Shown here piece after piece: positions 23,718 to 63,682 of a DNA stretch of 64,000 bases. The translations under genes were made by a program, and so were the position numbers. The notes below the pieces were generated by a model. The model had not been told where the DNA came from and searched no databases. It saw only the letters and a program-made list of their open reading frames with translations. Positions within the stretch are counted from its first letter, which is position 1. Each line of letters opens with the position of its first letter. This DNA comes from Saccharothrix algeriensis (GTDB lineage Bacteria; Actinomycetota; Actinomycetes; Mycobacteriales; Pseudonocardiaceae): assembly GCF_016907655.1 (NCBI RefSeq), contig NZ_JAFBCL010000001.1, forward strand, positions 2,886,001-2,950,000, given 5' to 3'.

Positions 23718-23790
23718 GTCGGTGCGTTGCGCCCGGGTTTACTGCGATCACGCTTTTCGATCGCAGTAAACCCGCGCGCAACGCACCGAC
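23718..23790 (+). repeat. Long-hairpin repeat, type 1, copy 1
   Basis: Two 32-nt arms (23718-23749 and 23759-23790) pair with a single C:C mismatch at arm position 16 around the 9-nt loop ACGCTTTTC. The lower stem uses GTCGGTGCGTT and the upper stem GGTTTACTGCGATC. It starts 18 nt after the SGNH stop. The flank to the right holds a GCCGCCGCCTGCGAAGCAGC segment shared with the 32.7-kb copies. Confidence 0.88.
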
Positions 23791-23864
23791 TACCAGGCGG
23801 CCTCGCCGCCGCCTGCGAAGCAGCGGCAATCCAACACAGCGGCAATCCAACACAGCGAGGTCGC

Positions 23865-23937
23865 GTCGGTGTGTTGCGCCCGGGTTTACTGCGATCACGC
23901 TTTTCGATCGCAGTAAACCCGCGCGCAACGCGCCGAC
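23865..23937 (+). repeat. Long-hairpin repeat, type 1, copy 2
   Basis: Arms 23865-23896 and 23906-23937, loop ACGCTTTTC, again with C:C at position 16; two other differences are G:U-compatible. Spacing to copy 1 is 147 nt, equal to the 131-nt period seen at 32.7 kb plus a 16-bp duplication of GGCAATCCAACACAGC. Confidence 0.88.
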
Positions 23938-23990
23938 TTCCAAGCGACCGAGCCGCCGCCTGCGAAGCAGCGGCAATCAGATAGAGCCAA

Positions 23991-24071
23991 CCGGCCGGCA
24001 CTCTCCCCCGAATGCCGGCCGGCCGGCGGTTGGGTGGCTTCCCCCCTGGCGTCCCCCTCCAAGAGCCACCC
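23991..24071 (-). terminator. Paired hairpins downstream of the AfsR-type gene
   Basis: Hairpin 23991-24022 has a 10-bp perfect stem CCGGCCGGCA; hairpin 24032-24071 pairs GGGTGGCT with AGCCACCC. They lie 80 nt beyond the stop of the regulator on the minus strand and could terminate it. The rest of 23700-24150 holds only the type 1 repeats. Confidence 0.55.
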
Positions 24072-24150
24072 GGCACGCCGGACCGCATCAGCGTTGATCG
24101 GCGTGCGCAACCAAGCTCCCACGATTCGCCGGTCATGTGCTAAACACCCG

Positions 24151-26964
24151 CTAAACCCCGGTGGTCAACACCTCCAGGGCCGTCCGGACCAGCAGCGCGC
24201 GCGGTGAGCCCAGCCGTTCGAACAGCCGCAGCGACTCGGCCAGTTCCGCCTGCGCCGCAACGGTTTCACCCCGGGCGGCGAGCACCGAGCCGAGCACCTG
24301 GCGGCCGAACGCCTCCTCGAACTGCATCGACCCGCCGCGCGCCAGCTCCACCGCCTGCCGGGCGTTGTCCTCGGCCTCGGCCGGCAGGCCGAGTTCGGCG
24401 TACAGCTCGGCCAGGTTGGCCACCGCCAGCACGTAGGACCGCTCGTGGCCGTGCCGCTGGTGCAGCTCCATCGCCTGGAACTGGTGCTCCACCGCCGTTT
24501 CCAGCCGGCCGAGGCGCTGCTCGACCTGCGCCAGGTTGTTCAGCACGGTCGCCTCGCCGAACGCGTCGCCGTCCCGCCGGGCCACCTCGACGGCCTCGCG
24601 GTAGTGGGCGAGCGCCTCCTCGTGGCGCCCCTCCGCCGACAGCGCGCACGCCAACTGGTCCAGCGCCAGCACCAGGTAGCGCGGCTCGCCCAGCTCCTCG
24701 GCGATGCGGTGCGCCCGCTCGGCTTCGGGCAGGGCGCCGTGCAGCACGCCGGTCCACACGTTGACGGCGTGCTTGGCGTGCAGCACCAGCAGCTCGCCGA
24801 GCGGGTCGCCGGCGGCCCGCGCGGACGCGAGGCCGAACTCGGCGATCGCCTGCCACTCGCGGCTGACCAGGCGCACCAGGCAGTACGGGTGGACCAGCCG
24901 CACCAGCTGCCAGACCTGCCGGTGCAGGCCCGCCTCCGAGCCGGCGTGGACGAGGGCGATGAGGTTGGGCCACTCCTTGTCGAACCAGGACAGCGCCTGG
25001 CCGGGGGTGGCCGGCCGGGGCGCCTTCGGCTCGCACGCCCCGAGGTCCACCCCGTCGGACGCCGGCCGGATGAGCCGGCGGGCGTGGTCGCACGCCGCCA
25101 GGTAGTGGTCCATCAGCCTGCGCAGCGCTTCCCTGCGCCGGTCGGGCCGCTCGCCGGCGAGCACCTCCCGCGCGTACAGGCGGACCAGGTCGTGCAGCAC
25201 GAACCCGCCGCGCCACAGCTCCACCAGCAGGTGGGCGTCGGCCAGGTCGGCCAACCGGCTCGCGGCGGTGCCCAGGTCGGTCCGGCACAGCGCGGCGACG
25301 GCGTGCGGGCTCACCCACCGCCCCGGCACCAGGCCCGCCGCCCGGAACGCCTCCGCCAGCTCCGGTGGCAGGTTGCGGTAGGACACCGCGAGGGCGCGCG
25401 CCACGCCGACGCCGGTGTCGGCGAGGTCCAGGGTGCGCAGCCGCGCGTCGTCGTCGGACAGCTGCGCCACCAGCGCCGCCACCGTCCACTCCGGACTGAA
25501 CACCAGCTTGGCCGCCGCGATCCGCAGCGCCAGCGGCAGGTTGCCGCACAGCTCCACCAGCGCGCGCATGGCGCCGGGCTCCTGCTCCGACAGCGGCTTG
25601 CCGACCACCTCGTCCACCAGCCGGACGGACTCGTCCTCGCGCAGCGCGTCCAGCGTCAGCATCCGCGCGCCGTTGGACACCACCAGCGGCTCCAGCCGCC
25701 GCCGCGAGGTCACCAGCACCACCGAGCCCGCGCCGGGCGGCAGCAGGGGGCGCACCTGCTCCGGGTCGCGCGCGTCGTCCAGCACCACCAGCACCCGCCG
25801 CTTGGCCAGCACCGACCGGTACAGGCCGACCCGGTCGTCCAGGTCGCGCGGCACGCCGTCGGACGGCACGCCCAGCGCCAGCAGGAACCGCCCCAGCACC
25901 TCGGCGGGCTCCAGCGGCTCGCGGTCGGGCGCGAACCCGTTGAGCGAGGCGAACAGCAGCCCGTCGGGGAACTGCTCGGCCCGGCGGCGCCCCCAGGTGA
26001 CCGCCAGCTCGCTCTTGCCGATCCCCGGCGCGCCGGTGACCACGGCCACCGTGGTCGCGTTCCGGTCGCGCCCGTCGCACAGCCGGTCCAGCCAGGCCAG
26101 CTCCTCGTCCCGGCCGATGAAGCCGCCGGCGGCGGCGGGCAGCTGCGCCGGCACGACCACCCCCGGCCGGGGCGGCGCCGGCGCCGCCGGCTCGGCCGGG
26201 CCCGGCGAGCTGAGCGCCGGGTCGTCGCGCAGCACCTGCTCGTGCAGCGCCCGCAGCTCCGGGCCGGGGTCGATGCCCAGCTCGTCCACCACCCGGCGGT
26301 GGAACCGCTGGTACGCCTCCAGCGCGTCGGCCCGCTGCCCCGACCGGTACAGCGCCCGCACCATGTGCCCGACCAGCCGCTCCCGGAACGGGAACTCGCC
26401 GACCAGCTGCCGCAGCTCCCCCACCAGCTCCAGGTGGCGGCCCAGCTCCAGCTCCGCCGCCACCCGCTCCTCCAGCGCGGCCAGCCGCAGCTCCTCCAGG
26501 TCCGTGGTGGCCGGCTCGCCCGGCACGTCGGCCAGCACCGGGCCCCGCCACAGGCCCAGCGACTCGCGCAGCAGCCGCGCCCGGATCGGCGCGGGCTTGC
26601 CGCGCGCGCCGGCCACCAGCTGCCGGGCGCGGTGGAAGTCCAGCCGCCACGGGTCGACCGCCAGCTGGTAGCCCGGCGGCGTGGTCAGGATCCGCGCCGA
26701 CCCGGTCGGGTCGGCCTGCTCCAGCATCCGCCGCAGCCGCGACACGTAGCCGTGCACGATGGTCCGGGCCGTGGCCGGCGGGTCGTCGGCCCACAGGCTG
26801 TCCACTATCTCGTCGATCGGGACCACCCGGTTCGCCTCCAGGACCAGCATCGCGAGCAGGCCGCGCATCCCCCGGCGGCCGATGACGAGCTGGCGGCCGT
26901 CGGCGAGCACCTGCAACGGCCCGAGGACGCCGAACTCCAGCCCGCTCCTGCTCCGGTCGACCAT
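24151..26964 (-). CDS. AfsR/SARP-family regulator with NB-ARC and TPR domains
   Basis: Large transcriptional activator, 937 aa. Residues about 10-100 form the OmpR-like DNA-binding domain (GRRGMRGLLAMLVLEANRVV), about 105-255 the bacterial transcriptional activation domain, about 285-560 an NB-ARC ATPase with Walker A GAPGIGKSELA and Walker B VLVVLDDARD, and about 690-930 TPR repeats. This is the AfsR architecture; such proteins switch on secondary metabolism. No biosynthetic cluster is in this window, so its target is unknown. ATG at 26964 with GGGGGAGGGGC. Divergent from the ADP-ribosylglycohydrolase gene. Confidence 0.9.
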   Translation of the reverse strand: MVDRSRSGLEFGVLGPLQVLADGRQLVIGRRGMRGLLAMLVLEANRVVPIDEIVDSLWADDPPATARTIVHGYVSRLRRMLEQADPTGSARILTTPPGYQLAVDPWRLDFHRARQLVAGARGKPAPIRARLLRESLGLWRGPVLADVPGEPATTDLEELRLAALEERVAAELELGRHLELVGELRQLVGEFPFRERLVGHMVRALYRSGQRADALEAYQRFHRRVVDELGIDPGPELRALHEQVLRDDPALSSPGPAEPAAPAPPRPGVVVPAQLPAAAGGFIGRDEELAWLDRLCDGRDRNATTVAVVTGAPGIGKSELAVTWGRRRAEQFPDGLLFASLNGFAPDREPLEPAEVLGRFLLALGVPSDGVPRDLDDRVGLYRSVLAKRRVLVVLDDARDPEQVRPLLPPGAGSVVLVTSRRRLEPLVVSNGARMLTLDALREDESVRLVDEVVGKPLSEQEPGAMRALVELCGNLPLALRIAAAKLVFSPEWTVAALVAQLSDDDARLRTLDLADTGVGVARALAVSYRNLPPELAEAFRAAGLVPGRWVSPHAVAALCRTDLGTAASRLADLADAHLLVELWRGGFVLHDLVRLYAREVLAGERPDRRREALRRLMDHYLAACDHARRLIRPASDGVDLGACEPKAPRPATPGQALSWFDKEWPNLIALVHAGSEAGLHRQVWQLVRLVHPYCLVRLVSREWQAIAEFGLASARAAGDPLGELLVLHAKHAVNVWTGVLHGALPEAERAHRIAEELGEPRYLVLALDQLACALSAEGRHEEALAHYREAVEVARRDGDAFGEATVLNNLAQVEQRLGRLETAVEHQFQAMELHQRHGHERSYVLAVANLAELYAELGLPAEAEDNARQAVELARGGSMQFEEAFGRQVLGSVLAARGETVAAQAELAESLRLFERLGSPRALLVRTALEVLTTGV

Positions 26965-27146
26965 GCCCCTCCCCCGCTTCGGTACGTGCTCGTTCGGTTC
27001 GGCTCGGTCACTGGATCAGGTGCGCCGCGTGGGCCGGTGGATACCTGTCGGTAGATGTTGTTTGCTCAACTAGCCGTGCTCCCATGACCGGACGACAGCG
27101 CGACGGCTAGGGTTTTGGCCCCGGACGACGCAGTGCAGGAGGGCAA

Positions 27147-28187
27147 GTGCCGCGCGAGCCGAAGAGCGTGGTCGACCGTGGCGCCGCCTGCCTGCTGGGC
27201 GGCGCCCTGGGTGATGCCCTGGGCGCGCCCGTCCAGTACTCGGGCTGGACGGACATCCAACGAGACCACGGCCCCGAGGGTGTTCTGGAACCGCCGCGTC
27301 CCGCTCTGGTGACCGACGACACCCAGCTCACCCTGTTCACCGCCGACGGCTACCTGCGCGCCTGGGTGCGCGGCCGGAACACCGGCGTGTGGGAGCCGGT
27401 GGAGACGGTGTGGCAGAGCTACCGGCACTGGCTGGTGACGCAGCAGGTGGCCGCGCCCGAGCCCGGGTGGACGGGGCTGGTCGCCGACGAGCGGCTGTAC
27501 TCCAGCCGGTCGCCGGGCCTGACGTGCCTGCGCGCGCTCGCGGCCGACAGCCCGCCGACCCCGGAGGACCCGCACAACGAGTCGTCCGGGTGCAACGGTG
27601 TGACCAGGACCGCGCCGGCGGGTTTCGCGCCGAGCGCGGACATCGCCTACGACCTGGGCTGCCGGTTCGCCGCGCTCACCCACGGCGGCACCGGCGGCTG
27701 GGTGGCCGGGGGCGCGTTCGCGCTGCTCATCCACCTGATCGCGGTGCGCGGGCGGCCGTTGCGGGAGGCGGTGGACCAGGTCATCGGGCGGGTGCTGCGC
27801 GACGACCCGTACACGGCGAACTCGCTCAACCGGGCCGTGGTGTTCGCCGAGGAGCACCGGGCGCTGGGCTTCGAGTCGGTGCGCGTCGACCGGCTGGGCA
27901 GCGGGTGGACCGGGCCGGAGGCGCTGGCCATCGCCGTGCACACCGCGCTGGTGTACCCGCGCCGGTCGGAGTTCGTGGACGCCCTGCGGGCGGCGGCGAA
28001 CCACTCCGGCGGCAGCGACGCGACGGCGGCGCTCACCGGCAACGTCCTGGGCGCGCTGCACGGGACGGCGGCGCTGCCCAGGGACTGGCTGGCGGGGCTG
28101 GAGCTGGTGGACCTGCTGACCCGGCTGGGCCACGACCTGGGGCACTCCGTGGTGGGCGAGGAGTTCGACCACCGGCGCTACGAGTGA
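27147..28187 (+). CDS. ADP-ribosylglycohydrolase (DraG-like) with altered metal motif
   Basis: All-helical ADP-ribosylglycohydrolase fold, 346 aa; GGALGDALGAP at the N-terminus and the metal-binding VTDDTQLTLF are intact. The second metal motif, usually DSDST, reads GSDAT (in NHSGGSDATAALTGN), so the first Asp ligand is Gly and the Ser is Ala. It may be catalytically weakened or have another substrate. GTG start after GCAGGAGGG. Divergent from the AfsR-type gene across 182 nt. Confidence 0.85.
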   Translation: MPREPKSVVDRGAACLLGGALGDALGAPVQYSGWTDIQRDHGPEGVLEPPRPALVTDDTQLTLFTADGYLRAWVRGRNTGVWEPVETVWQSYRHWLVTQQVAAPEPGWTGLVADERLYSSRSPGLTCLRALAADSPPTPEDPHNESSGCNGVTRTAPAGFAPSADIAYDLGCRFAALTHGGTGGWVAGGAFALLIHLIAVRGRPLREAVDQVIGRVLRDDPYTANSLNRAVVFAEEHRALGFESVRVDRLGSGWTGPEALAIAVHTALVYPRRSEFVDALRAAANHSGGSDATAALTGNVLGALHGTAALPRDWLAGLELVDLLTRLGHDLGHSVVGEEFDHRRYE

Positions 28188-28591
28188 CCGGGGCGCCGCC
28201 GGGACCCGATCACCGGGCGCGGCGCCCGGGCTTGGCAGACGGCCTCGGCCGCACGATCCCGAATTCGTGCGACCGAAGCCGGCTCTCCGCGCGGTCGGCG
28301 CCGGGGTGCGCCCCGAGCGCGGCACCCGGCTGACCTGCGCAGAGCGGGTAACCCGTACCAGTAACCGTAGCAGGACGCGTGCGGGTCATCACACCCGGCC
28401 CACGTCCACGGCGACGCGGAGCGCCGGAACCGGGCGGCGGCCCGGTTCCGCACCGGGGGCGCGGCGCCGCGGCGGCGGGCCGCCGACCCGCTGGGCGCCC
28501 GCTGTCGCCCACCTGTCGACTTCCTGTGGATCGCGGCGGCCGGGGCCGGCCGGGTTCGACCGCCGGCCGGCGGGTGGCGCACCATGGGCGG
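28188..28591. other. Gap without a recognised gene
   Basis: About 400 nt of GC-rich DNA upstream of the two-component operon. A near-loopless palindrome with arms CCGGGCGC/GCGCCCGG lies at 28213-28229, 26 nt after the ADP-ribosylglycohydrolase stop. No other structured element or gene is supported. Confidence 0.5.
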
Positions 28592-29290
28592 GTGGACAAG
28601 GCCAATGCGGTTCGACTGCTCGTCGTGGACGACGAGCCCCACATCGCGGACCTGGTCGCGACCGTCGCCCGGTACGAGGGCTGGCAGGCCGCCACGGCGG
28701 GCAGCGGCGAGGCCGCGCTGGAGGCCGCGGCCGAGTTCCACCCGGACATCGTGGTGCTCGACCTGATGCTGCCCGACCTCGACGGGTTCACCGTGCTGGA
28801 CCGGCTGCGGTCGACCGGCGCGATGGTGCCGGTGGTGTTCCTCACCGCCCGCGACGCCACGGCCGACCGCGTGGCGGGCCTCACCCGGGGCGGCGACGAC
28901 TACCTGGTCAAGCCGTTCTCGGTGGAGGAGCTGATGGCGCGGCTGCGGGCCGTGCTGCGGCGCAGCACCGGGCCGCAGTGGAAGCGGTCCGTTCTCAAGG
29001 TGTCGGACCTGGCCCTGGACGAGGACACCCGCGAGGTCCGGCGGGGCGGCAGGCTGGCCACCCTCACGCCCACCGAGTACGAGCTGCTGCGCTACCTGAT
29101 GCGCCGCTCGCCGGCGGTGCTGACCAAGGCCCAGATCCTCGACCACGTGTGGGAGTACGACTTCGGCGGCCGGTCCAACGTCGTGGAGCTGGTCATCTCG
29201 CACCTGCGGCGCAAGCTGGACGACGGCCACGAGCCGCTGATCCACACCGTGCGCGGCGTCGGGTACGCGCTGCGCAAGGCGCCCGACTGA
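28592..29290 (+). CDS. OmpR/PhoB-family response regulator
   Basis: Two-component response regulator, 232 aa. Receiver domain residues about 7-120 with acidic pair Asp13/Asp14, phospho-acceptor Asp57 in VVLDLMLPD and Lys in LVKPFSVEEL; winged-helix effector domain about 135-228 ending in HTVRGVGYALRK. GTG start at 28592; the site before it is weak. The stop overlaps the sensor kinase (TGATG), so both are cotranslated. Confidence 0.92.
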   Translation: MDKANAVRLLVVDDEPHIADLVATVARYEGWQAATAGSGEAALEAAAEFHPDIVVLDLMLPDLDGFTVLDRLRSTGAMVPVVFLTARDATADRVAGLTRGGDDYLVKPFSVEELMARLRAVLRRSTGPQWKRSVLKVSDLALDEDTREVRRGGRLATLTPTEYELLRYLMRRSPAVLTKAQILDHVWEYDFGGRSNVVELVISHLRRKLDDGHEPLIHTVRGVGYALRKAPD

Positions 29291-30789: not shown

Positions 30790-30801
30790 CGCTTCGGCTT
30801 C

Positions 30802-30825
30802 CCGGCCGGCGCGATCGCCGGCCGG
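30802..30825 (+). terminator. Terminator hairpin after the two-component operon
   Basis: A 10-bp perfect stem CCGGCCGGCG with a CGAT tetraloop begins 13 nt after the kinase stop. No T-tract follows, as usual in actinomycetes. Confidence 0.65.
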
Positions 30826-31011
30826 CGGCTAGGCGGTTCCCCCGCGCGGGGCGCCGAGCCGCCATTCGACGCAGTGGAATTCCCTGCGAACCGAGCAGTA
30901 CTCGACGGGCACGTCCCGGATCCGCCACATGACCGGGCATCGGCGTCCGGTCACGCCCGGACCGCACGCCGACCCTGCGCCGGTGTGCCCGACCGAGAGA
31001 AGACACCGACG

Positions 31012-32649
31012 ATGCATCGCACACGCAGACCGGCGCTCGCGGCGCTCGCGCTCGCGCTCGCCGCGTCCGTCACCCAGGCGGTCTCCCCTGCCACCGCCGC
31101 CCCCGTTGCCCCCGCACCGTCCAAGTGCGGCCCGATGGACGTCTCCTTCGTGGTCGACGACACCGGCAGCATGGGCGGCGCGATCGCCAACCTGAAGACC
31201 GGCATCAACCAGATCGCCCAGGTGGTCGAGGACCTGTCCGGGTTCGACTACCGGCTGAGCCTGGTGCGGTTCAAGGACAACATCACGGTCGTCAACAACT
31301 TCGCGCCCGGCAACAAGAACGCCGTCGCCGCGAGCGTGAACGCCCTCGCCGCGGGCGGCGGCAACGGCGAGCCCGAGGCGTCCGACGAGGCGCTCAACAC
31401 GGTGGTCAACAACCTGCCCGCGGCGGGCCGCCCGCAGAACGCCGACTTCTCCGTCGGCTGGCGGTCGAACGCGACCAAGCTGGCGGTGCTGATCACCGAC
31501 GCCCGGCCGGGCGGGTTCGACGACGTCTACGACACCACGACCAACACCGACCTGAACAACGCGGCGCTGCGGGCCAACCAGGCGCTCGGCAACGGCATCA
31601 AGATCTCGTCGGTCTACGTGCCCACGTCGACCACCTTCAACAACCCGATCATCCCGATCATGCAGAACTACGCCACCACGACCGGCGGCCTGTTCACCCA
31701 GGCGCAGGCCAACGGCTCGGGCGTGAGCACGGCGATCGTGAACTTCCTGCGCGACTGCAAGCGCAGCGACGTGTTCATCCGCGACCAGGTGGCCGACACC
31801 GGTGTCGAGCCGAACGGCAACTCGCTGTTCTGGAACAGCCCGGACATCAAGGTCTGCCCGACCACCGCGGACTGCGGGCCGGGCGGCATCCAGCCGGTCG
31901 TGGGCGCGCTGAACTACATCCACGTGCGGCTCAACAACCCCGGCCCGTACGGCGGCGGGGACTCGTCGGGCACGCTGAAGGTCTACCGCACCACGCCGGG
32001 CGGTTCCACGAACTGGCACCCGGTGACCAACGGCGACTGGACGTTCATCGGCCAGAAGAGCCTCACCGTGCCCACCGGCGGCACGACGGTGGCGAAGATC
32101 CCGTGGAAGCCCGTCCCCGGTCCGGGCCACTTCTGCCTGCTGGCGCGCTGGGTGTCGGCGAGCGACCCGATGGGCTACCCGGAGGTCTCCGACACGGCGC
32201 TCAACACCAAGCGCAACAACAACGTGGCGTGGCGCAACTTCCAGACCATCCGCGTGAAGCCGCTGAGCCCCGGCAGGTCCTGGTTCGCCGTGGGCAACGC
32301 CACCGAGCGCGAGATCAAGACCGACCTGGTCATCACCAGCCCGGACCGCCCGCTGGTCGGCAGCGGCCGGGTGGTCATCGACCTGGGCCCGCGCCTGTTC
32401 GAGCTGTGGCGCCAGTCCGGCGGCCACGCCGAGGGCATCAAGCAGGTGGGTGAGACCAGCGTCGAGGTGGCGGACCCGAAGCGGGCGGCCCTCGTCGGCC
32501 TGCCCATCAGGCCGGGCGAGCGCTTCACCACCGAACTGACCTTCGTGGGCGGCGCCGAGCCCGGTGAGTTCGTCCAGCACATCGTGCAGCACGTGGACGG
32601 CGAGGACATCGGCGGCGTCGGCTACGGCATCACCGTCGACAAGGAGTAA
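31012..32649 (+). CDS. Secreted von Willebrand factor A domain protein
   Basis: Exported protein of 545 aa: basic N-terminus and hydrophobic segment with likely cleavage after TAAPVA (about residue 37). The VWA domain (about residues 43-250) keeps the metal-ion-dependent adhesion site DDTGSMGG. The second half is beta-rich, with Trp/Pro-rich stretches resembling a carbohydrate- or surface-binding region; no sorting signal or transmembrane anchor is seen. Function unknown; VWA proteins mediate metal-dependent protein contacts. It stands alone, followed 76 nt later by type 1 repeat hairpins. Confidence 0.85.
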   Translation: MHRTRRPALAALALALAASVTQAVSPATAAPVAPAPSKCGPMDVSFVVDDTGSMGGAIANLKTGINQIAQVVEDLSGFDYRLSLVRFKDNITVVNNFAPGNKNAVAASVNALAAGGGNGEPEASDEALNTVVNNLPAAGRPQNADFSVGWRSNATKLAVLITDARPGGFDDVYDTTTNTDLNNAALRANQALGNGIKISSVYVPTSTTFNNPIIPIMQNYATTTGGLFTQAQANGSGVSTAIVNFLRDCKRSDVFIRDQVADTGVEPNGNSLFWNSPDIKVCPTTADCGPGGIQPVVGALNYIHVRLNNPGPYGGGDSSGTLKVYRTTPGGSTNWHPVTNGDWTFIGQKSLTVPTGGTTVAKIPWKPVPGPGHFCLLARWVSASDPMGYPEVSDTALNTKRNNNVAWRNFQTIRVKPLSPGRSWFAVGNATEREIKTDLVITSPDRPLVGSGRVVIDLGPRLFELWRQSGGHAEGIKQVGETSVEVADPKRAALVGLPIRPGERFTTELTFVGGAEPGEFVQHIVQHVDGEDIGGVGYGITVDKE

Positions 32650-32724
32650 CCCCGCGAGCCGCCGACTCCCCAGCGGCCAAGCCGCCGCCTGCGAAGCAGC
32701 GGCCATCAGACACAGCGAGGCCGC

Positions 32725-32797
32725 GTCGGTGGTTCGTGGCGCGGGTCTTGCCGATCACGCCCTTCGATCGGCAAGACCCGCCCCGCGAGCCGCCGAC
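32725..32797 (+). repeat. Long-hairpin repeat, type 1, copy 3
   Basis: Arms 32725-32756 and 32766-32797, loop ACGCCCTTC. The upper stem is GGGTCTTGCCGATC, unrelated to the 23.7-kb stem but fully self-paired. C:C mismatch at position 16; three further differences are U:G wobbles when read as + strand RNA. Confidence 0.88.
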
Positions 32798-32855
32798 TTC
32801 CCAGCGGCCGAGCCGCCGCCTGCGAAGCAGCGGCCATCCAACACAGCGAGGCCGC

Positions 32856-32928
32856 GTCGGTGGTTCGTGGCGCGGTTGTCGTCGATCACGCTTTTCGATC
32901 GGCGACAACCGCCCCGCGAGCCGCCGAC
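32856..32928 (+). repeat. Long-hairpin repeat, type 1, copy 4
   Basis: Arms 32856-32887 and 32897-32928, loop ACGCTTTTC. The lower stem equals copy 3 but the upper stem is CGGTTGTCG with its own complement on the other arm. C:C mismatch at position 16 is again present; four other differences are U:G wobbles. Confidence 0.88.
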
Positions 32929-32975
32929 TCCCAGGCGGCCGAGCCGCCCGACGGAGTCGGGCCATTGAACACGAG

Positions 32976-43732: not shown

Positions 43733-43902
43733 TCGTGTTCTCCCCGTATGGCCTGCCCGCAGGGCGACCGCGCTTGTCGTGGCAGGTCAAGCGCGCTTTT
43801 CGCTTGACCTGCCACGACCAGGGTGGTGGTCTTCGACAGGCCGTGCGGGGAGAACACGACCGCTCTTCCTCCTCCTTGGCGGCCTGCCCGTCCGGCGAGG
43901 AC
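43733..43902 (+). repeat. Long-hairpin repeat, type 2, copy 1
   Basis: Outer arms TCGTGTTCTCCCCG (43733) and CGGGGAGAACACGA (ending 43859) enclose an inner hairpin: arms 43776-43792 and 43802-43818 (17 bp perfect, TCGTGGCAGGTCAAGC) around the loop GCGCTTTTC. A 31-bp flank at 43872-43902 starting CTCCTTGGCGGCCTGCC is identical in the 63.3-kb copy. It fills most of the 343-nt gap between the PPOX and HAD genes. Confidence 0.88.
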
Positions 43903-44016: not shown

Positions 44017-44631
44017 GTGACGATCCGCGCCGTCCTCTTCGACTTCTCCGGGACGCTCTTCCGCCTCGAGCACGACTCGCTGGCCGAGCACGCCGACCTG
44101 ATGCGCGCGCTGACCGCGCCGGTCGGCGTCGCCGAGGGCCTCGACATCGACCCGGACGAGTGGGCCCGCCGCGACCTCGACGGCGACCTGCACCGGGACC
44201 TGCACATCAAGGCCCTCACCGCCGCCGGCGCGCAGGACCCCGCCGACTTCTACGGCCGGCTGTGCAGCCCGCCGTTCTGGCAGCCCTACCCGGACACCGC
44301 GGCGGCCCTGGGCAGCGGGCTGCCGACGGCCGTGGTGAGCAACATCGCGTGGGACATCCGGGCCGTCTTCGCGCGCCACGGCGTGGAGGACCTGGTCGAC
44401 GAGTTCGTCCTGTCCTACGAGGTGGGCTCGGTCAAACCGGACCCGAAGATCTTCCAGGTGGCCTGCGAGCGGCTCGGGGTTCACCCGTCCGAGGCATTGA
44501 TGGTCGGCGACAGCGAGGAGGCCGACGGCGGCGCGGCGGCGATCGGCTGCCGGGTCGAGATCGTGCCGCCGCTGGAGACCGGCCAACGGCCCGACGCGCT
44601 GCTCCGGGTGCTGCGCGAGCACGCGGCATAG
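44017..44631 (+). CDS. HAD-superfamily hydrolase with DFSGTL motif
   Basis: Haloacid-dehalogenase-fold hydrolase, 204 aa, beta-phosphoglucomutase-like cap. Motif I is DFSGTL: the nucleophile Asp is kept but the usual second Asp (acid/base) is Ser. Motif II VSN, motif III Lys in GSVKPDPKIF and motif IV GDSEEAD are present. Such variants may act as dehalogenases or altered phosphatases. GTG start; a dre-like site precedes it, suggesting a sugar-phosphate substrate (inference). Inserted between ispF and cysS relative to mycobacteria. Confidence 0.82.
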   Translation: MTIRAVLFDFSGTLFRLEHDSLAEHADLMRALTAPVGVAEGLDIDPDEWARRDLDGDLHRDLHIKALTAAGAQDPADFYGRLCSPPFWQPYPDTAAALGSGLPTAVVSNIAWDIRAVFARHGVEDLVDEFVLSYEVGSVKPDPKIFQVACERLGVHPSEALMVGDSEEADGGAAAIGCRVEIVPPLETGQRPDALLRVLREHAA

Positions 44632-54766: not shown

Positions 54767-54801
54767 GGGCTGGCTCCTCGACGGGCTGGATTTATGTGCA
54801 A

Positions 54802-56083: not shown

Positions 56084-56129
56084 GGGAACGCACCTTTCAC
56101 TACCGAGCTTTGCCGCAACGGTAGGGATT

Positions 56130-56141: not shown

Positions 56142-56184
56142 GGGAACGGGTGGATTGGTCCAGTCCGCGCGGCGCCCGGCGGGC

Positions 56185-57989: not shown

Positions 57990-58010
57990 GGTCGCCTCCT
58001 GGGGTCGGCG

Positions 58011-58045
58011 GGCGGGCCGCGCGCCAAGGGGAGGCGCGGCCCGCC
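58011..58045 (-). promoter_or_regulatory. Intercistronic hairpin between malE and malF
   Basis: A 12-bp perfect stem GGCGGGCCGCGC with an 11-nt loop. Such structures commonly raise binding protein over permease expression by partial termination or mRNA protection. Confidence 0.65.
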
Positions 58046-58058
58046 GCGGGAAGGGGGG

Positions 58059-59306
58059 TCAGCCGATGGCGTAGTCCTCGACGACCCTGTTCCGGTAGAC
58101 CTCGGCCACCTCGTCCAGCGCCGCGCGGGCGTCCTTCTTCCCCGCGAGCACGTCGGCGTAGGCGATCTTCAGCGGCTCGAACAGCTCCGCGCCCTCCGGG
58201 ATCCACGGGCGGGCGTGGGCGGCGTCGACGACCTGGCGGAACGCGGAGACGACCGGGTTGCCCTTGACGCCGGCGACCTCGTAGGCGGACTTGCGGGTGG
58301 GCAGCAGGCCCAGCTCCTCGGCGATACGCGCCTGCGACTCGGCGCTGCTCATGCACGCGACGAGCTCGACCGCGGAGTCCCGGGCCGCGGTGCCCTGGCG
58401 GATGACGTAGTCGTGGCCGCCGACCGGCGCCGAGCCCTTGCCGGCCGTCTCGCCGGGCACGGGCGCGATGCCGAGGTCGGCCGCGTCCGCGAACGCCTCA
58501 CCCTTGAGGTAGTCGGTCACCGACCACGGGCCGTTGATCACCATCGCGACCTCGCCGGCGGAGAACGCGGCCTGCATGTTGCCGTAGGAGTTCACCGGGT
58601 CCAGGGCGGTGGTCGCGGCCTTGGCGTCGAGCAGGCCCTTGGCGGTCTCCAGCGCCGCCACGTTCTCGGCGGAGTTGACGACGATCTTCTTCGCGGGCGC
58701 GTCCACGAGGTCGCCGCCCGCGCCGTAGATGAACGGCAGCGCGTAGTAGGCGTCGTTGTTGAGGAACAGGGTCTTCTCGCCGCCGAGCTTCGCGGCGGCG
58801 GCCTTGACCTCGTCCCAGGTCTTCGGCGGCTCCACGCCGGCGTCGGCGAGCTTGCGCTTGTTGTAGAACAGCGCCAGCGAGTCGGTGACCTGGGGCACGC
58901 CGTAGGTCCGGTCCTGGAACCTGGTGGAACCCAGCGGGGTGGCGAGGAAGTCGTCGGTGTCCCTGCCCAGCTCGGTGTCGGTGAGGTCGACGACGTAGCC
59001 GAGCTGGGCCAGCTGCGGCACCCAGGCGACCTCGGCGCGGAACACGTCGGGGCCCTGGCCGCCCTGCGCGGCGGTCTTGAAGTTGTTGAGCGCGAGGTCG
59101 AAGGCCACCACCTCGGTCCGCACCCGGTAGCCGCCCTCGGCGGCGCACTCCTGCGCGATCCGGTCGAACACCGGGCTCTCGCCGGGGCCGCTGGTGTCCC
59201 AGAAGGTGACCACGCCGCTGTCGGCGGGCGCGCCGCCGCCGCACGAGGCGAGGACGAGCGCGCCGGCCAGACCCGCCGCGGCGGTGACGAAGGTGGTGCG
59301 TCGCAT
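58059..59306 (-). CDS. malE: Maltose/maltodextrin-binding lipoprotein MalE
   Basis: Family-1 solute-binding lipoprotein, 415 aa. Signal peptide ends in LASC with Cys22. TFWDTSGPGESPVF, GPDVFRAEVAWVPQLA and GHDYVIRQ segments are typical of Streptomyces MalE. ATG 59306 with GGAGGGA (spacing about 12 nt); an in-frame extension upstream is unlikely since the lipobox would be buried. Divergent from malR across 227 nt with several MalR-type sites. Confidence 0.87.
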   Translation of the reverse strand: MRRTTFVTAAAGLAGALVLASCGGGAPADSGVVTFWDTSGPGESPVFDRIAQECAAEGGYRVRTEVVAFDLALNNFKTAAQGGQGPDVFRAEVAWVPQLAQLGYVVDLTDTELGRDTDDFLATPLGSTRFQDRTYGVPQVTDSLALFYNKRKLADAGVEPPKTWDEVKAAAAKLGGEKTLFLNNDAYYALPFIYGAGGDLVDAPAKKIVVNSAENVAALETAKGLLDAKAATTALDPVNSYGNMQAAFSAGEVAMVINGPWSVTDYLKGEAFADAADLGIAPVPGETAGKGSAPVGGHDYVIRQGTAARDSAVELVACMSSAESQARIAEELGLLPTRKSAYEVAGVKGNPVVSAFRQVVDAAHARPWIPEGAELFEPLKIAYADVLAGKKDARAALDEVAEVYRNRVVEDYAIG

Positions 59307-59348
59307 CGTTGGTGCCGTCCCTCCGGTTGGCCTCATCGGGATGAGGTT

Positions 59349-59484
59349 CTGCAAGGACTTGCGAAATTCCTGACACAAGTTGCATAACCCCCTACCAGCG
59401 GAGGGTCAAGACACTTGCAGTAACCAAGCCGTAACGGAGGCGATCCACCGGACCGGCCGGGGACCGGCGTTGCAAAAACTTGCC
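59349..59484. promoter_or_regulatory. MalR operator cluster between malE and malR
   Basis: Four CTTGCA-type elements: GCAAGGACTTGC (perfect palindrome, 59351-59362), ACAAGTTGCA (59375-59384), CACTTGCAG (59412-59420) and GCAAAAACTTGC (59472-59483). Streptomyces MalR binds repeated CTTGCAG motifs before malE. Confidence 0.75.
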
Positions 59485-59533
59485 GGTCCCGGCAGGCTGC
59501 ACGTCACCCACGATCACCGAACGAGGAGGCGCG

Positions 59534-60583
59534 GTGTCCGGACTGTCCGAGATCGCGAGGGCAGCCGGGGTGAGCATGTCCACGGTCAGCCGGGTGCTCA
59601 ACCGCCGGGCGGGTGTCAACGAGGAGACCCGCCAGCGCGTGCTGGCCGTGCTCGCGGAGATGCCCTACACGCCGCGCGGCCTGGGCGCGCTCCAGCGGAC
59701 CGGGGTGATCGGGCTGCTCGTGCCGGAGCTGTCCAACCCGGTGTTCCCCGCGTTCGCCGAGGCGCTGGAGGTGCGCGCCGCGCGGCTGGGGTACTCGTCG
59801 CTGCTGTGCAACACGCGCGCGACCGGCAGCGCGGCCATGGGCGAGGAGGAGTACGTCCGGATGCTGCTCGCCCGCGGCGTCGAGGGCATGGTGTTCGTGT
59901 CGCCGGAGATCACCAACGCCGAGGTGCCGCTCGGCCAGGCGCCCCGGCCCAGCTACTACGCCAAGCTGCTGGCCGACGGCGTGCACATGGTGTTCCTCAA
60001 CGGGGCCACGCCGTCGCTGGACGTGCCGGACGTGACGGTGGACGAGCAGCACGCGGGGTACGCGGCGACCCGGCACCTGGTGGAGCTGGGGCACCGCCGC
60101 ATCGGCTTCGTGTCCGGTCCCGCGCGGTCGCTGACGTCCCGGCTGAAGCGGGCGGGCTGGTCGGCGGCGCTGGAGGAGGACGGGCTGCCCGCCGGCTCCG
60201 AGTACGTGGCGCACGCGCCGTTCGGGCCGGAGGGCGGCGCGGCGGCGACGGCCGCGCTGCTGGACGCGGTGCGGCCGACGGCGGTGATCTGCTCGTCCGA
60301 CCACATGGCGATCGGCGTGCTGCGGGAGGCGCACCGGCGCGGCCTGTCGGTGCCCCGCGACCTGTCGGTGGTGGGGTTCGACGACATCCCGCTCGCGTCG
60401 TACTGCTCGCCGTCGCTGACCACGCTGGCGCAGCCGATCGAGGAGATGGCGGCAGCGGCCGTGGACGAGTTGGCGCACCGGCTGGACCCCGACCGGCGCA
60501 GGCGGCCGGCGGGCAACTACACCCGCGTGTTCCGCCCGGAGCTGGTCGTGCGGGAGTCCACGGCGCCGCCACCCACCGCCTAA
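59534..60583 (+). CDS. malR: LacI-family maltose repressor MalR
   Basis: LacI/GalR repressor, 349 aa: helix-turn-helix at residues about 3-22 (LSEIARAAGVSMSTVSRVLN), hinge PRGLGALQ, then a periplasmic-binding-like core. GTG start after ACGAGGAGGCG. Divergent from malE, matching Streptomyces malR-malEFG. The stop codon overlaps a dre-like site. Confidence 0.87.
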   Translation: MSGLSEIARAAGVSMSTVSRVLNRRAGVNEETRQRVLAVLAEMPYTPRGLGALQRTGVIGLLVPELSNPVFPAFAEALEVRAARLGYSSLLCNTRATGSAAMGEEEYVRMLLARGVEGMVFVSPEITNAEVPLGQAPRPSYYAKLLADGVHMVFLNGATPSLDVPDVTVDEQHAGYAATRHLVELGHRRIGFVSGPARSLTSRLKRAGWSAALEEDGLPAGSEYVAHAPFGPEGGAAATAALLDAVRPTAVICSSDHMAIGVLREAHRRGLSVPRDLSVVGFDDIPLASYCSPSLTTLAQPIEEMAAAAVDELAHRLDPDRRRRPAGNYTRVFRPELVVRESTAPPPTA

Positions 60584-60598
60584 TTGGTCTGGACCATG
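60583..60598. promoter_or_regulatory. dre-like site between malR and the second lacI gene
   Basis: ATTGGTCTGGACCATG has the DasR core GGTCTGGACC. It overlaps the malR stop and lies 102 nt before the next gene, suggesting DasR control of that regulator. Confidence 0.6.
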
Positions 60599-60674
60599 TT
60601 CCACGCAGGTGACCCGGTCCCACCTGCGCGGATGCACCTTCTCAGGGATGCCCGTCACGCCTGCTTCTGTAATT

Positions 60675-60685
60675 GGTTCTGAACC
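60675..60685. promoter_or_regulatory. Candidate autoregulatory operator of second LacI protein
   Basis: GGTTCTGAACC is a perfect odd palindrome just before the presumed start at 60700. Confidence 0.45.
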
Positions 60686-60699
60686 GTTACGGTCACTTC

Positions 60700-61803
60700 A
60701 TGGCGCGGTCGATGCATGTGCGACGCCCCGCGACGCTGGCCTCACTGGCGGCGGAGCTGGGTGTTTCCCGGACAACGGTGTCCAACGCGTACAACCGTCC
60801 CGACCAGCTCTCGCCGGAGCTGCGACGCCGGGTGTTGGAGACAGCGAGGCGGCTCGGCTACCCGGGGCCCGACCCGGTGGCGCGGTCGCTGCGGACGCGG
60901 AAGGCCGGTGCGGTGGGGCTGCTGCTCACCGAGAACCTGTCCTACGCCTTCCGCGACCCGGCGGCGATCGGGTTCCTGGAGGGCCTGGCCCTGGCGTGCG
61001 AGGACGCCGGGACCGGGCTGCTGCTGGTGCCGGCGAACCCCGAGCGCGAGGACGTGGCGGCCGTGCACCGCGCCGGCGTCGACGGGTTCGTCGTGTACTC
61101 GGTGCCCGACGACGACCCGCACCTGGCGGCGGTGCTGGAGCGGCCGGTGCCGACGGTGGTGTGCGACCAGCCGGACCTGGGCAACGTCGACCGGGTCGGC
61201 ATCGACGACCGGGCCGCGATGAACTCGCTCGCCCGCCACCTCATCTCGCTCGGCCACCGGCGGGTCGGCGTGGTGTGCATGAGGCTCGCCCGCGACCGCA
61301 ACGACGGCTACGTCACCGCCGAGCGGCAGCGGTCCGCGCACTTCCACGTGCAGCGGTCCCGGCTGGCGGGGCTGGCCGAGGCGTTCACCGAGGCCGGCGT
61401 CGACTGGGCGGGTGTGCCGGTGGTGGAGCGGTTCGACCACAACACCGCCTCCGGCGCGTCGGCCGCCGCCCAGGTGCTCGACCGCGACCCGCAGATCACG
61501 GCGCTGATCTGCACGTCGGACATCCTCGCGCTGGGCGCGCTGGGCGAGGCGCGCAGGCGCGGCCTCGCCGTGCCGCACGACCTCACGGTCACCGGGTTCG
61601 ACGGCATCCGCGAGGCGGAGCAGGCCGGCCTCACGACCGTCCGCCAGCCCGTGCTGGAGAAGGGCCGGGCGGCGGGCAAGCTGCTGCTGGACTCGGCGGA
61701 GCGGACCAGGCCGCGCACGGTGACGCTGTCCACCGAGCTGGTCGTCGGCTCCACGGCGGCGTCGCCGCGCGGAGCGGTCGAGGAGCGCTGGTTCGGCCCG
61801 TGA
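60700..61803 (+). CDS. LacI-family regulator, target unknown
   Basis: Repressor of 367 aa: helix-turn-helix at about residues 12-31 (TLASLAAELGVSRTTVSNAYN) and a sugar-binding core. It is divergent from MalR in sequence and slightly longer. Start is uncertain: ATG 60700 has no clear site; ATG 60712 is an alternative. Located between malR and a convergent membrane-protein gene; a dre-like site lies upstream. No adjacent target operon, so it may act at a distance. Confidence 0.85.
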   Translation: MARSMHVRRPATLASLAAELGVSRTTVSNAYNRPDQLSPELRRRVLETARRLGYPGPDPVARSLRTRKAGAVGLLLTENLSYAFRDPAAIGFLEGLALACEDAGTGLLLVPANPEREDVAAVHRAGVDGFVVYSVPDDDPHLAAVLERPVPTVVCDQPDLGNVDRVGIDDRAAMNSLARHLISLGHRRVGVVCMRLARDRNDGYVTAERQRSAHFHVQRSRLAGLAEAFTEAGVDWAGVPVVERFDHNTASGASAAAQVLDRDPQITALICTSDILALGALGEARRRGLAVPHDLTVTGFDGIREAEQAGLTTVRQPVLEKGRAAGKLLLDSAERTRPRTVTLSTELVVGSTAASPRGAVEERWFGP

Positions 61804-61821
61804 CGCGCGGCGGGCCGGGCG

Positions 61822-62514
61822 TCAGGTCATCCGGAAGGCCACCGGGTCGCTCGACCTCCCGGCCACCCGAGCGGTGAGCAGGTAGTCCCCCGGGCCCAGC
61901 CGGGTGTGCTCCGCGCAGCCCGGCTCCGAGGCCGTCCCCCGCCACTCCAGGCCGTACTCGAACAGCTCGCCGGGGCGCAGGACCCGCACCTCGGACCCGA
62001 CGGTGTCGTAGCAGTCGTTGCTCGACCAGAGCCGGGCGCCCCCGTCGGCCGCGGTCACCACCAGCTCCCGCACCGCGCGGCCGATCTCCTCGGCGCACGG
62101 CTCCGGCCCGGTGTTCGACACCCGGATGCCCAGCTCCACCCGCTCCCCCGCCGGGTGGGAAGCCCTGTCCAGGGTCGCCACGACGCCCAGCTGCGCGGGC
62201 TCGCACCGCCGCGGCAGGCCCAGCGGCGACGGGGGCTGCCCCGGGAGGTGGCCGGGCGGGTGGGCGGCGGCCGGCCGGGTGGACGGGCCGGGCGGGGGCG
62301 AGGCCGACGAGGAGGCCGGCGAGGGCGGGTCGGCCTGCGGCGGCGGGTTGGAGACCACCGGGGCGACCGGGTCGGCCGGCGCGGACTCGCCGTGCCCGAT
62401 GAGCGCGCCCACCAGCCACACGGCCAGCACGGTCGCGACCGCGGTGCCGGCGGCGGCCAGCGCTCGACGACGCCGGTACACCTCCGGCGGCAGTGGACCT
62501 GTGGGCACGATCAC
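61822..62514 (-). CDS. Membrane-anchored Pro/Ser-rich protein
   Basis: 230-residue protein: basic N-terminus, one membrane helix (about residues 18-42), an extracellular Pro/Ala/Ser linker of about 60 residues and a beta-rich C-terminal domain with four Cys (RRCEPAQL, EPCAEE, NDCYDT, EPGCAEH) that could form two disulphides. Reads like a cell-envelope protein. Family not recognised. GTG start; its end converges on the second lacI gene. Confidence 0.65.
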   Translation of the reverse strand: MIVPTGPLPPEVYRRRRALAAAGTAVATVLAVWLVGALIGHGESAPADPVAPVVSNPPPQADPPSPASSSASPPPGPSTRPAAAHPPGHLPGQPPSPLGLPRRCEPAQLGVVATLDRASHPAGERVELGIRVSNTGPEPCAEEIGRAVRELVVTAADGGARLWSSNDCYDTVGSEVRVLRPGELFEYGLEWRGTASEPGCAEHTRLGPGDYLLTARVAGRSSDPVAFRMT

Positions 62515-62655
62515 TTGGCGAAGGTAACCAAGTGACGTGGAATGGCCACGTAACTGCTTGTCATCCGATGTGATGAACGTGATTCACACCCCGGATCGGT
62601 TGCCGGTCCGCTGGAGGCGGGTTCCAATCCGGGGAGGAACAGGGAGGTGTTGGGC

Positions 62656-63147
62656 ATGACGTCCATCGAAGAGCTGCTGCGCCGCAACGGGGAGCTGGGC
62701 AACGCCGTGCCCGGTGACCGCTCCTCGCCTCGGCCCTCCATGCAGGTTGCCATCCTGACCTGCATGGACTCCCGCATCCGGGTCTTCGAGATCTTCGGGC
62801 TCAAGCAGGGCGAGGCGCACGTGCTGCGCAACGCGGGCGGCGTGGTCACCGACGACATGATCCGGTCGCTCGCGCTGAGCCAGCGCAAGCTGGGCACCCG
62901 CGAGGTGCTGCTGGTGCACCACACCAACTGCGGGTTGCAGCTGGTCACCGAGGACGAGTTCAAGGACGAGCTGGAGTCCGACGCCGGGATGCGCCCCACC
63001 TGGGCCGTCGAAGCCTTCCGCGAGGTCAAGGACAGCGTCCGCAACTCCATGAACCGCCTCCGCCACAGCCCCTTCGTGCCGCACCGGGACAACATCCGCG
63101 GGTTCGTCTACGACGTGCACACCGGCGAGCTGACCGAGGTCGTCTAG
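62656..63147 (+). CDS. Beta-class carbonic anhydrase
   Basis: 163-residue zinc enzyme interconverting CO2 and bicarbonate. Zinc ligands are in CMDSR (Cys, and Asp of the Asp-Arg dyad) and HHTNCG (His, Cys), and the active-site RNAGG segment is present. Short relative to plant-type enzymes but normal for actinobacterial members. ATG with GGAGG at 8 nt. Followed after 122 nt by the repeat region. Confidence 0.92.
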   Translation: MTSIEELLRRNGELGNAVPGDRSSPRPSMQVAILTCMDSRIRVFEIFGLKQGEAHVLRNAGGVVTDDMIRSLALSQRKLGTREVLLVHHTNCGLQLVTEDEFKDELESDAGMRPTWAVEAFREVKDSVRNSMNRLRHSPFVPHRDNIRGFVYDVHTGELTEVV

Positions 63148-63268
63148 GGGCTCTCGCCTGCGCGCGTGGTGCCCGCACGACGCGCGCAGGCCGCACGGCT
63201 CACTTTTCGCCCTCGGCTCTTGGCCCTTGGCTCTTGGCTTTTGGCACGCCCCGTGCAGACCGGTGCCT

Positions 63269-63445
63269 TCGTGTTCTCCCCGTATGGCCTGCCCGGAGGG
63301 CTACCATGCTTTTCTGGGGGGTGCAAGCACGCTTTTCGCTTGCACCCCCCAGAAAAGCATGGTCGTCTTTAGACAGGCCATGCGGGGAGAACACGACCGC
63401 TGTTTCTTTTCATTCTCCTTGGCGGCCTGCCCGTCCGGCGAGGAC
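63269..63445 (+). repeat. Long-hairpin repeat, type 2, copy 2
   Basis: Outer arms TCGTGTTCTCCCCG (63269) and GGGGAGAACACGA (ending 63396). The inner hairpin has 26-bp perfect arms 63303-63328 and 63338-63363 (ACCATGCTTTTCTGG lower part) around ACGCTTTTC, the same loop as the type 1 repeats. The 31-bp flank 63415-63445 is identical to that of the 43.8-kb copy; the inner stem is unrelated to it. Confidence 0.9.
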
Positions 63446-63555
63446 TCTTTCAAGCTCTTCAGCTGAGATCCGTACTGCACCAAATCTAACCCGGATCGGT
63501 GCAGGTCAGAGGTATGAAGGGCGGCCAGGAGGCCCCCAAGGAGGAGGGAAGTGCG

Positions 63556-63682
63556 TCGTGTTCTCCCCGCACGGCCTGCCGGAGGCAATCATCTTTGTCG
63601 GGGGGTGTCAAGCGAAGGGCGTGCTTGACACCCCCCGACAAAGATGATCGGGCTGCGCCCAGGCCGTACGGGGAGAACACGA
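63556..63682 (-). repeat. Long-hairpin repeat, type 2, copy 3 (inverted)
   Basis: Inner arms 63588-63613 and 63623-63648 form a 26-bp perfect stem (ATCATCTTTGTCGG lower part). The + strand loop GAAGGGCGT is the reverse complement of ACGCCCTTC, and outer arms and the Lys-like CCTTGGGGG flank are reversed too, so the element lies on the minus strand, facing copy 2. Confidence 0.88.

What the first reader, a model, noticed from the sequence alone, without database searches (positions are those of the whole stretch)
23718..63682. Seven long hairpins share a 9-nt loop but have unrelated, self-paired stems
Seen directly: seven intergenic hairpins (23718, 23865, 32725, 32856, 43776, 63303, 63588) have loops ACGCTTTTC, ACGCCCTTC or GCGCTTTTC, with one element on the opposite strand (its loop reads as the reverse complement). 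The stems are long (17-32 bp), differ completely between loci, and still pair within each copy. Simple duplication would keep the stem sequence; random change would destroy pairing. So either structure is under selection, or some process rewrites whole stems as inverted repeats. Each copy lies 18-122 nt beyond the 3' end of a + strand gene (type 1 pairs follow the SGNH and VWA genes). This could be a family of structured RNAs or terminators, or a mobile-element remnant. I know of no described family with this signature.
Basis: seen in the sequence. Interest (0 to 1): 0.92.

Follow-up and report, generated by a model that had tools for sequence, protein, structure and literature searches.

The report
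REPIN-like hairpin repeats with drifting stems
The hairpins belong to two large families of repeated, folded DNA elements scattered near gene ends in Saccharothrix and related bacteria; their loop stays nearly the same while the middle of the stem keeps changing in both arms together, much like the known REPIN elements, although the usual transposase gene was not found in the window's own genome.

Summary
The seven hairpins are real and belong to two repeat families, T1 and T2. A 14-nt loop-plus-arm pattern occurs 179 times in the window's 6.88-Mb genome (reversed-pattern control 0) and up to 128 times in congeners. Stems are not unrelated: loop, loop-closing pairs, distal stem and outer stem are conserved within each family; mainly about 10 mid-stem pairs vary, in both arms together. 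Covariation is very strong (388 and 451 two-sided cells; slid controls 31-105). T2 is an inverted repeat that can fold into a four-way junction with two mini-hairpins. G-T beats A-C on the strand with loop ACGCYYTTC (57 against 14 distinct states), so a single strand folds. One site carries different cores in different species. Mutation plus compensation suffices; half-changed pairs occur. Closest known kind: REPINs (passages), but the GTAG tag is missing and the Y1/RAYT gene is absent from four of the five richest genomes (G012 has one). T1 is usually the first strong hairpin after a stop codon and, at one gene, stands where 18 of 19 orthologues have an ordinary one.

The parts
23708..23839 (+). 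T1 unit 1: outer stem 23708-23717/23797-23806, main stem 23718-23749/23759-23790, loop 23750-23758 ACGCTTTTC, mini-hairpin CTGC-GAA-GCAG 23813-23823, tail AATCCAACACAG
23855..23986 (+). T1 unit 2 (tandem, 147 nt on, same core): main stem 23865-23896/23906-23937, loop 23897-23905; 3' end approximate
32715..32845 (+). T1 unit 3: main stem 32725-32756/32766-32797, loop 32757-32765 ACGCCCTTC; after the VWA-domain gene ending at 32649
32846..32962 (+). T1 unit 4 (tandem, 131 nt on, different core): main stem 32856-32887/32897-32928, loop 32888-32896; 3' end approximate
43736..43858 (+). T2 unit, single: outer stem, inner stem around loop 43793-43801 GCGCTTTTC (17 bp perfect 43776-43792/43802-43818)
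63270..63395 (+). T2 unit A of an inverted doublet: inner stem 63303-63328/63338-63363, loop 63329-63337 ACGCTTTTC
63557..63681 (-). T2 unit B of the doublet: inner stem 63588-63613/63623-63648, loop 63614-63622 (ACGCCCTTC on the minus strand); minimum-energy RNA and DNA folds are a four-way junction

Best explanation
These are two families (T1 about 130 nt; T2 about 125 nt, often an inverted doublet of about 410 nt) of REPIN-like, non-autonomous dispersed repeats. Each unit is an inverted repeat that works as one folded single strand, the strand whose apical loop reads ACGCYYTTC: outer stem, junction with mini-hairpins (T2) or a separate mini-hairpin behind it (T1), long inner stem, conserved 9-nt loop. 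Loop, loop-closing pairs, junction and outer stem are the parts read in sequence; the mid-stem is only a spacer helix, so it drifts by mutation plus compensation. Shown: copy number, covariation, strand asymmetry, presence in several species with different cores at one site, absence beside orthologous genes of relatives, gene-end bias. Inferred: that a protein reads the fold (probably the enzyme that spreads the element; it was not found, and is not a Y1/RAYT protein in the window's genome), and that T1 copies also end or protect transcripts.
For: 179 pattern matches in G000 (control 0), 128, 54, 44 and 42 in four congeners. Covariation: T1 43 pairs, 30 with two-sided change, 92.3% of cells paired, score 0.384 (slid 0.044-0.076); T2 48 pairs, 28, 98.0%, 0.418 (slid 0.057-0.089); 0 of 500 shuffles as high for paired cells, two-sided pairs, two-sided cells and score. 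Mini-hairpins in 69 of 69 left and 67 of 69 right T2 linkers, with pair switches. T2 halves align as inverted copies in the 5 units compared. G-T against A-C 41:11 (T1) and 16:3 (T2) distinct states, 44:12 and 16:3 with a filter that treats both alike. Loop kept without selecting for it: of 25 T2 model matches in 464 kb of G000, 20 read RCGCYYTTC, 4 are near variants, 1 is unrelated. Same gene, different core: G000, G010, G015 after the VWA gene; G000, G015, G005 beside the 937-aa gene (14 genomes printed). Two G000 T2 sites empty beside the orthologous gene in the 9 relatives printed for each. Clusters: convergent 85, co-directional 65, divergent 18, unclassified 6, against 42/108/60 intergenic regions of G000, p 3e-10. 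REPIN passages.
Against: No mobilising enzyme was identified; PF01797 has no match in G000, G015, G010, G008, and the 7 Y1 loci of other congeners have no T1 or T2 model match within 1.5 kb. No target-site duplication or exact empty site was resolved. T1 clusters in G000 lie 10 on the leading and 11 on the lagging strand if the terminus is opposite dnaA, whereas IS200/IS605-type insertion prefers the lagging strand (recalled). GTAG is not a conserved tag. No match in the phage or plasmid records. The four-way junction is the best fold of only 1 of the 3 T2 units folded.
Confidence: 0.6

Rival explanations
1. A dispersed family of transcription terminators or 3'-end RNA elements: the hairpin acts in the transcript of the upstream gene and selection on RNA folding alone keeps it; doublets serve convergent genes.
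For: T1 is usually the first strong hairpin after the stop codon: 3 of 37 gaps hold another, length-matched control mean 9.6, range 4-16. At the VWA gene 3 of 22 orthologues listed have T1 and 18 of the other 19 an ordinary hairpin within 130 nt. Convergent bias. Compensatory evolution of terminators is published for Bacillus cereus (passages), and long stable hairpins with few U for Streptomyces (passages).
Against: Copies facing the other way or in divergent regions pair just as well: T1 1.45 unpaired per hairpin in 51 sense copies against 22 others, p 0.98; T2 73 against 27, p 0.61. Co-directional singles and tandems face with the gene 30 times, against it 19 times. T1 units start a median of 77 nt after the stop, so they end well beyond the 66-76 nt median transcript ends of Streptomyces. 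For T2 the gaps hold about as many other hairpins as controls (16 of 83 against 20.7), and the copy behind the carbonic anhydrase gene lies behind an ordinary hairpin.
Confidence: 0.22
2. Arm-to-arm rewriting: a template switch copies one arm onto the other, so changes appear in both arms at once.
For: On tree edges of at most 3 pairs, two-sided Watson-Crick changes outnumber one-sided ones (T2 84 against 30; T1 35 against 23), and transversion switches are about as common as transition switches (T2 41 and 43; T1 15 and 20). In T2 of G000 diversity peaks sharply at mid-stem in both arms.
Against: In neighbouring tandem copies one-sided changes, non-wobble ones among them, are as common as two-sided (10 against 8). 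G-T against A-C asymmetry is not expected of copying. Asymmetric junction linkers persist. Fast switching through unpaired states is also reported for ordinary terminators (passages).
Confidence: 0.08
3. Ordinary duplicated repeats whose pairing is a by-product of recent copying.
For: Tandem arrays and near-identical T2 doublets exist.
Against: Up to four Watson-Crick pair types at one mid-stem position with no unpaired cell (T2 columns 53/93) and different cores beside one gene in different species.
Confidence: 0.03

Closest known systems
REPINs (REP doublets forming hairpins; PMC3116915, passages seen)
   Same: Intergenic inverted doublets, conserved ends, spacer with common compensatory changes, hairpin or clover fold, high copy number, clusters.
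   Different: No GTAG tag; no Y1/RAYT gene in G000, G015, G010, G008 (one in G012); longer stems; a conserved 9-nt apical loop shared by two families; host is an actinomycete.
GTAG- and CGTC-tagged REPs (PMC3733652, abstract and passages seen)
   Same: High-copy extragenic palindromes; CGTC REPs also apparently lack a dedicated transposase.
   Different: REPs are 20-40 bp, CGTC stems 8-9 bp with 4-5 nt loops; these units are about 125-130 nt with inner stems of 26-32 bp and 9-nt loops.
Actinomycete terminator hairpins with few U (PMC12207403, passages seen)
   Same: Long stable hairpins downstream of genes, covariation.
   Different: A dispersed homologous family with conserved loop and junction, found also antisense and in divergent regions.

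Membership tests
REPIN | inverted doublet of a conserved module with pairing spacer | tested here: met
   T2: halves align as inverted copies in the 5 units compared; linkers form mini-hairpins
REPIN | compensatory changes in the spacer | tested here: met
REPIN | GTAG (or listed variant) tag beside the REP hairpin | tested here: not met
   T2 reads GTAT 53, GTAC 13, GTGT 2, GGAT 1 of 69; GTAG occurs anywhere in only 6 of 67 T1 rows, not as a conserved column
REPIN | RAYT (Y1 transposase) in the genome, with the repeats beside its gene | tested here: not met
   PF01797: no match in G000, G015, G010, G008; matches in 5 of 25 genomes, among them G012 (44 copies) and G023 (23 copies); 0 of those 7 Y1 loci has a T1 or T2 match within 1.5 kb
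REPIN | mobile within genomes | tested here: inconclusive
   copies present in one species and absent beside the orthologous gene in others; no exact empty site or excision seen
Intrinsic terminator | transcripts end at the hairpin | not testable with these tools
   no RNA data
Intrinsic terminator | placed 3' of a gene in the sense direction | tested here: inconclusive
   gene-end bias strong, orientation bias weak
Any Rfam family | score above the gathering cut-off | tested here: not met
   the window scan gives only the tRNA; relaxed scans of one T1 and one T2 stretch give only matches below the cut-offs, mostly microRNA precursors

The most novel reading that the evidence does not exclude
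A new class of structure-recognised mobile repeat in actinomycetes, spread as a folded single strand by an enzyme other than a RAYT that reads the 9-nt loop and the junction; T1 and T2 are two lineages kept alike at the loop by that shared enzyme, and T1 is now and then taken over as a gene's terminator. (Odds lowered from 0.30 to 0.25 on checking, because three of the copy-bearing congeners, G012, G019 and G023, do have Y1 genes.)
Probability: 0.25. Interest if true: 0.75.

Novelty: new variant of a known kind. Interest (0 to 1): 0.52.

Why it matters
If right, REPIN-like elements exist in genomes without a RAYT gene and in GC-rich Gram-positive bacteria, and this genus offers hundreds of natural compensatory variants of one fold inside single genomes, a ready data set for how paired positions evolve and for finding the protein that reads the loop. 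It may also be a source of terminators in genomes where U-tract terminators are rare.

Tried and rejected
Tried without result: Rfam at gathering (whole window) and relaxed thresholds (one T1 and one T2 stretch); blastn of one T2 doublet and one T1 pair against plasmid and phage records (no match); viral contigs by exact pattern (T2: 0, T1: 1 contig, not followed up). An autonomous T2 with a gene of its own: the 1.47-kb gap between an A and a B unit at G000 1413890-1415360 holds an insertion with a DDE_3 transposase (Pfam; IS630-type is recalled) at a TA inside the spacer, not a T2 gene. Literature searches: listings; 0 papers each; no listed title names these elements. Only passages were seen of PMC3733652, PMC12207403, PMC5381666, PMC10527192 and PMC3116915.

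Considered and dropped: 'nearer to the sense gene' for T2 in convergent regions (38 of 43), because the unit itself is lopsided and B units with 10-nt loops are missed by my loop pattern; for the same reason some T2 'singles' are in truth doublets. T1 gave no such bias (12 of 24). Context counts rest on my own codon-usage gene caller trained on the window, not on annotation; the background is G000 only, and includes regions that hold elements, while the clusters come from five genomes. GNA triloops as a hint for single-stranded DNA folding: the extra stability of short DNA hairpins of this kind is mostly recalled (passages of PMC10527192 speak of extraordinarily stable mini-hairpins but did not show the sequence), and descent alone could keep them.

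Limits of the counts: pattern-fetched copies have the loop and 3' closing bases by selection, so only speaks for their conservation, and even that with models trained on such copies. The structures were laid out from single rows of the alignments and the copies are related, both of which inflate such tests, as the tool warns. For T2, 1 of 500 shuffles reached the observed number of further pair types. Identical 99-nt contexts were counted once (180 hairpins); 5 of 184 pattern contexts had no or weak stems and stayed out. A1 has 67 of 68 listed T1 (L186 left out), A2 69 of 71 listed T2 (L206, L214 left out: right outer arm missing). One search kept 48 of 49 doublets (one at a locus edge). By my count about 100 of the 179 places were listed; G000 copies studied come from its first 3.95 Mb, the window and 20 stretches of 20 kb. 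score at most 25 and 21 candidates a genome, often count both strands of one site, and each model also finds the other family at 30-51 bits, so low-scoring matches there are not family-specific.

Full report
What is there. The seven hairpins were read directly and rank 1-4, 6, 7 and 10 in a scan for short-distance inverted repeats. They fall into two families. T1 (23718, 23865, 32725, 32856) closes its loop with CGATC/GATCG; T2 (43776, 63303, 63588) with CAAGC/GCTTG. Both carry the loop RCGCYYTTC. Neighbouring genes, by Pfam: a GDSL lipase (22932-23699), a BTAD/NB-ARC regulator of 937 aa (24151-26964, minus strand), a VWA-domain protein (30874-32649), a HAD hydrolase (44017-44631), a carbonic anhydrase (62647-63147) and, beyond the window, an HhH-GPD repair protein (MutY-like, recalled).

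Copy number. The pattern RCGCYYTTCGMTYG (loop plus five 3'-arm bases) occurs 93 + 86 times in the 6,878,582-base genome of the window and the reversed pattern never. In 24 other genomes of the genus it ranges from 0 to 128; in the 35 genomes outside the genus it stays at 0-4, as does the control. Covariance models from 67 T1 and 69 T2 sequences find matches in 16 and 23 of 150 genomes drawn from the family, in 4 and 7 of 46 genera; the two models also cross-match at 30-51 bits, so only the stronger matches outside the genus (T1 up to 84 bits, T2 up to 87.5 bits) count. In three T2-like loci of genus g8 the loop is kept (ACGCTTTTC, ACGCTCTTC, ACGCTTCTC) on quite different stems; in the g39 and g49 loci printed a GTNTGGCCTG-like outer module (GTACGGCCTG in one) is kept but the apical part is different and longer.

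Is the loop conserved, or selected by my search? Of 25 T2 model matches in 464 kb of G000 not chosen by the pattern, 20 read RCGCYYTTC, one ACGCTCCTC, three ACGCTTCACC, and one weak match has another loop.

Anatomy. T2: outer stem of about 22 bp, then on each side a mini-hairpin (left CCC-GGA-GGG, CGC-GCA-GCG, GGC-GCA-GCC and kin; right GTC-TTT-GAC, GCC-TTC-GGC and kin), then the inner stem of 26 bp and the loop. Mini-hairpins are possible in 69 of 69 left and 67 of 69 right linkers (13 of 13 and 21 of 23 distinct linkers; shuffled means 5.3 and 3.3, maxima 12 and 9). The minimum-energy fold of 63555-63681, minus strand, is this four-way junction as RNA and as DNA; for the other two T2 units folded it is one long hairpin with internal loops. 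Of five units folded, energies are -92.8 to -107 kcal/mol, z -9.7 to -16.1. T2 halves are inverted copies of one module (five units aligned). T1: outer stem, main stem of 32 bp in the window copies, loop, then a separate mini-hairpin whose triloop reads GGA (39) or GAA (19) in 58 of 75 copies, 14 giving no clear stem and 3 a different split, and a tail AATCCAACACAG or kin. In most T1 copies two of nine outer-stem pairs are not formed (51 and 49 of 67).

Covariation. T1: 92.3% of 2743 cells paired, 30 of 43 pairs with change on both sides, 388 such cells (shuffled 116.7, slid 31-105). T2: 98.0% of 3311 cells, 28 of 48 pairs, 451 cells (shuffled 109.6, slid 41-69). In T2 the five loop-closing pairs never vary and in T1 they hardly do, but the 3' side of these was required by the search. 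Variation peaks at mid-stem. In 48 G000 T2 doublets the A stem has diversity above 0.1 at only four positions and the B stem at about eleven, alike in both arms, with 11 and 24 distinct stems, while the spacer between the two units differs by 14% on average.

Which strand folds. G-T pairs outnumber A-C on the strand with loop ACGCYYTTC: 134:17 and 52:3 cells in 69 T1 and 71 T2 distinct hairpins; counting each genome, position and pair once, 41:11 (p 4e-5) and 16:3 (p 0.004); with a filter that treats both mismatches alike, 44:12 and 16:3. Both C-to-T and A-to-G changes contribute, so a simple deamination bias does not explain it. This says a single strand folds; it does not say RNA or DNA.

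How the stems change. On tree edges of at most 3 pairs, T2 has 84 two-sided Watson-Crick changes against 30 one-sided, T1 35 against 23, with transversion and transition switches about equal. That could suggest copying of one arm from the other. But in 13 neighbouring tandem T1 pairs there are 8 two-sided and 10 one-sided core changes, and two doublets have an A stem with arms of two variants. Mutation, then purging or compensation, is enough; fast switching is also reported for B. cereus terminators (passages). Different cores beside one gene: after the VWA gene G000 has two T1 units, G010 one and G015 one, all with different mid-stems; in G000 and G010 the tRNA-Thr follows. Beside the 937-aa gene G000, G015 and G005 differ likewise and G010 has a disrupted one (14 of 25 genomes printed).

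Place. Of 174 clusters in five genomes 85 lie between convergent, 65 co-directional and 18 divergent predicted genes, 6 unclassified; the intergenic regions of 60 nt or more in 464 kb of G000 give 42, 108 and 60, p 3e-10. In co-directional regions singles and tandems face with the gene 30 times and against it 19 times. T1 is usually the first strong hairpin after the stop (3 of 37 gaps with another, control mean 9.6), T2 is not (16 of 83, control 20.7). Of 22 VWA orthologues, 3 have T1 and 18 of the other 19 have an ordinary hairpin with score 16 or more within 130 nt. But at the lipase gene and the carbonic anhydrase gene the element stands beside an ordinary hairpin, not in its place, and copies facing away from the gene are as well paired as the rest. 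Transcript ending cannot be the only thing that keeps the fold.

Mobility. The T2 copies at 43776 and 63303 are absent beside the orthologous HAD and carbonic anhydrase genes in the 9 relatives printed for each, though the neighbouring gene is not the same in all of them. Copy number varies widely in one genus. A Y1 (RAYT-type) protein has no match in G000, G015, G010 and G008, which have 179, 128, 54 and 42 pattern copies; G012 (44), G019 (24) and G023 (23) have one or two, and so have G014 (11) and G018 (0). None of the 7 Y1 loci has a T1 or T2 match within 1.5 kb. T1 clusters of G000 lie 10 on the leading and 11 on the lagging strand, with the terminus assumed opposite dnaA.

Comparison. 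REPINs share the inverted conserved ends, the spacer with compensatory changes and the clover fold (passages). Two defining features fail: the GTAG tag (T2 reads GTAT or GTAC in 66 of 69) and a RAYT with repeats beside it. So these work like REPINs but are not filed as REPINs. No Rfam family fits.

Noticed in passing
L037 1036-2210 (G000 1413000-1416300) and G000 sites 307773, 942650, 2859617: An insertion with a DDE_3 (IS630-type, recalled) transposase sits at a TA inside a T2 doublet spacer; three other T2 units end abruptly at the same end sequence, so copies of it seem to have entered their outer arms.
   Followed up: partly
window 63700 to about 64000 and on into L329: Behind the T2 doublet lies a tandem array with a period of about 74 nt (AAGCGCCGCCGCGCGGAGCGCGGCCTGCTGG...) up to the HhH-GPD gene; relatives have a short gap there.
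   Followed up: no
3' side of the 937-aa gene, window about 23990-24030: A hairpin with loop GGGGGA and a varying, still paired stem follows this gene in all 14 genomes printed, apparently a shared terminator of two convergent genes.
   Followed up: no
G010 C3:24 and C20:21, and the G010 and L094 loci: Draft contigs end, or show G or C runs, at or near such hairpins, so copy numbers in draft genomes may be too low.
   Followed up: no
L357 6089-6107: One IMG/VR contig of 226,773 bases holds an exact T1 loop pattern.
   Followed up: no
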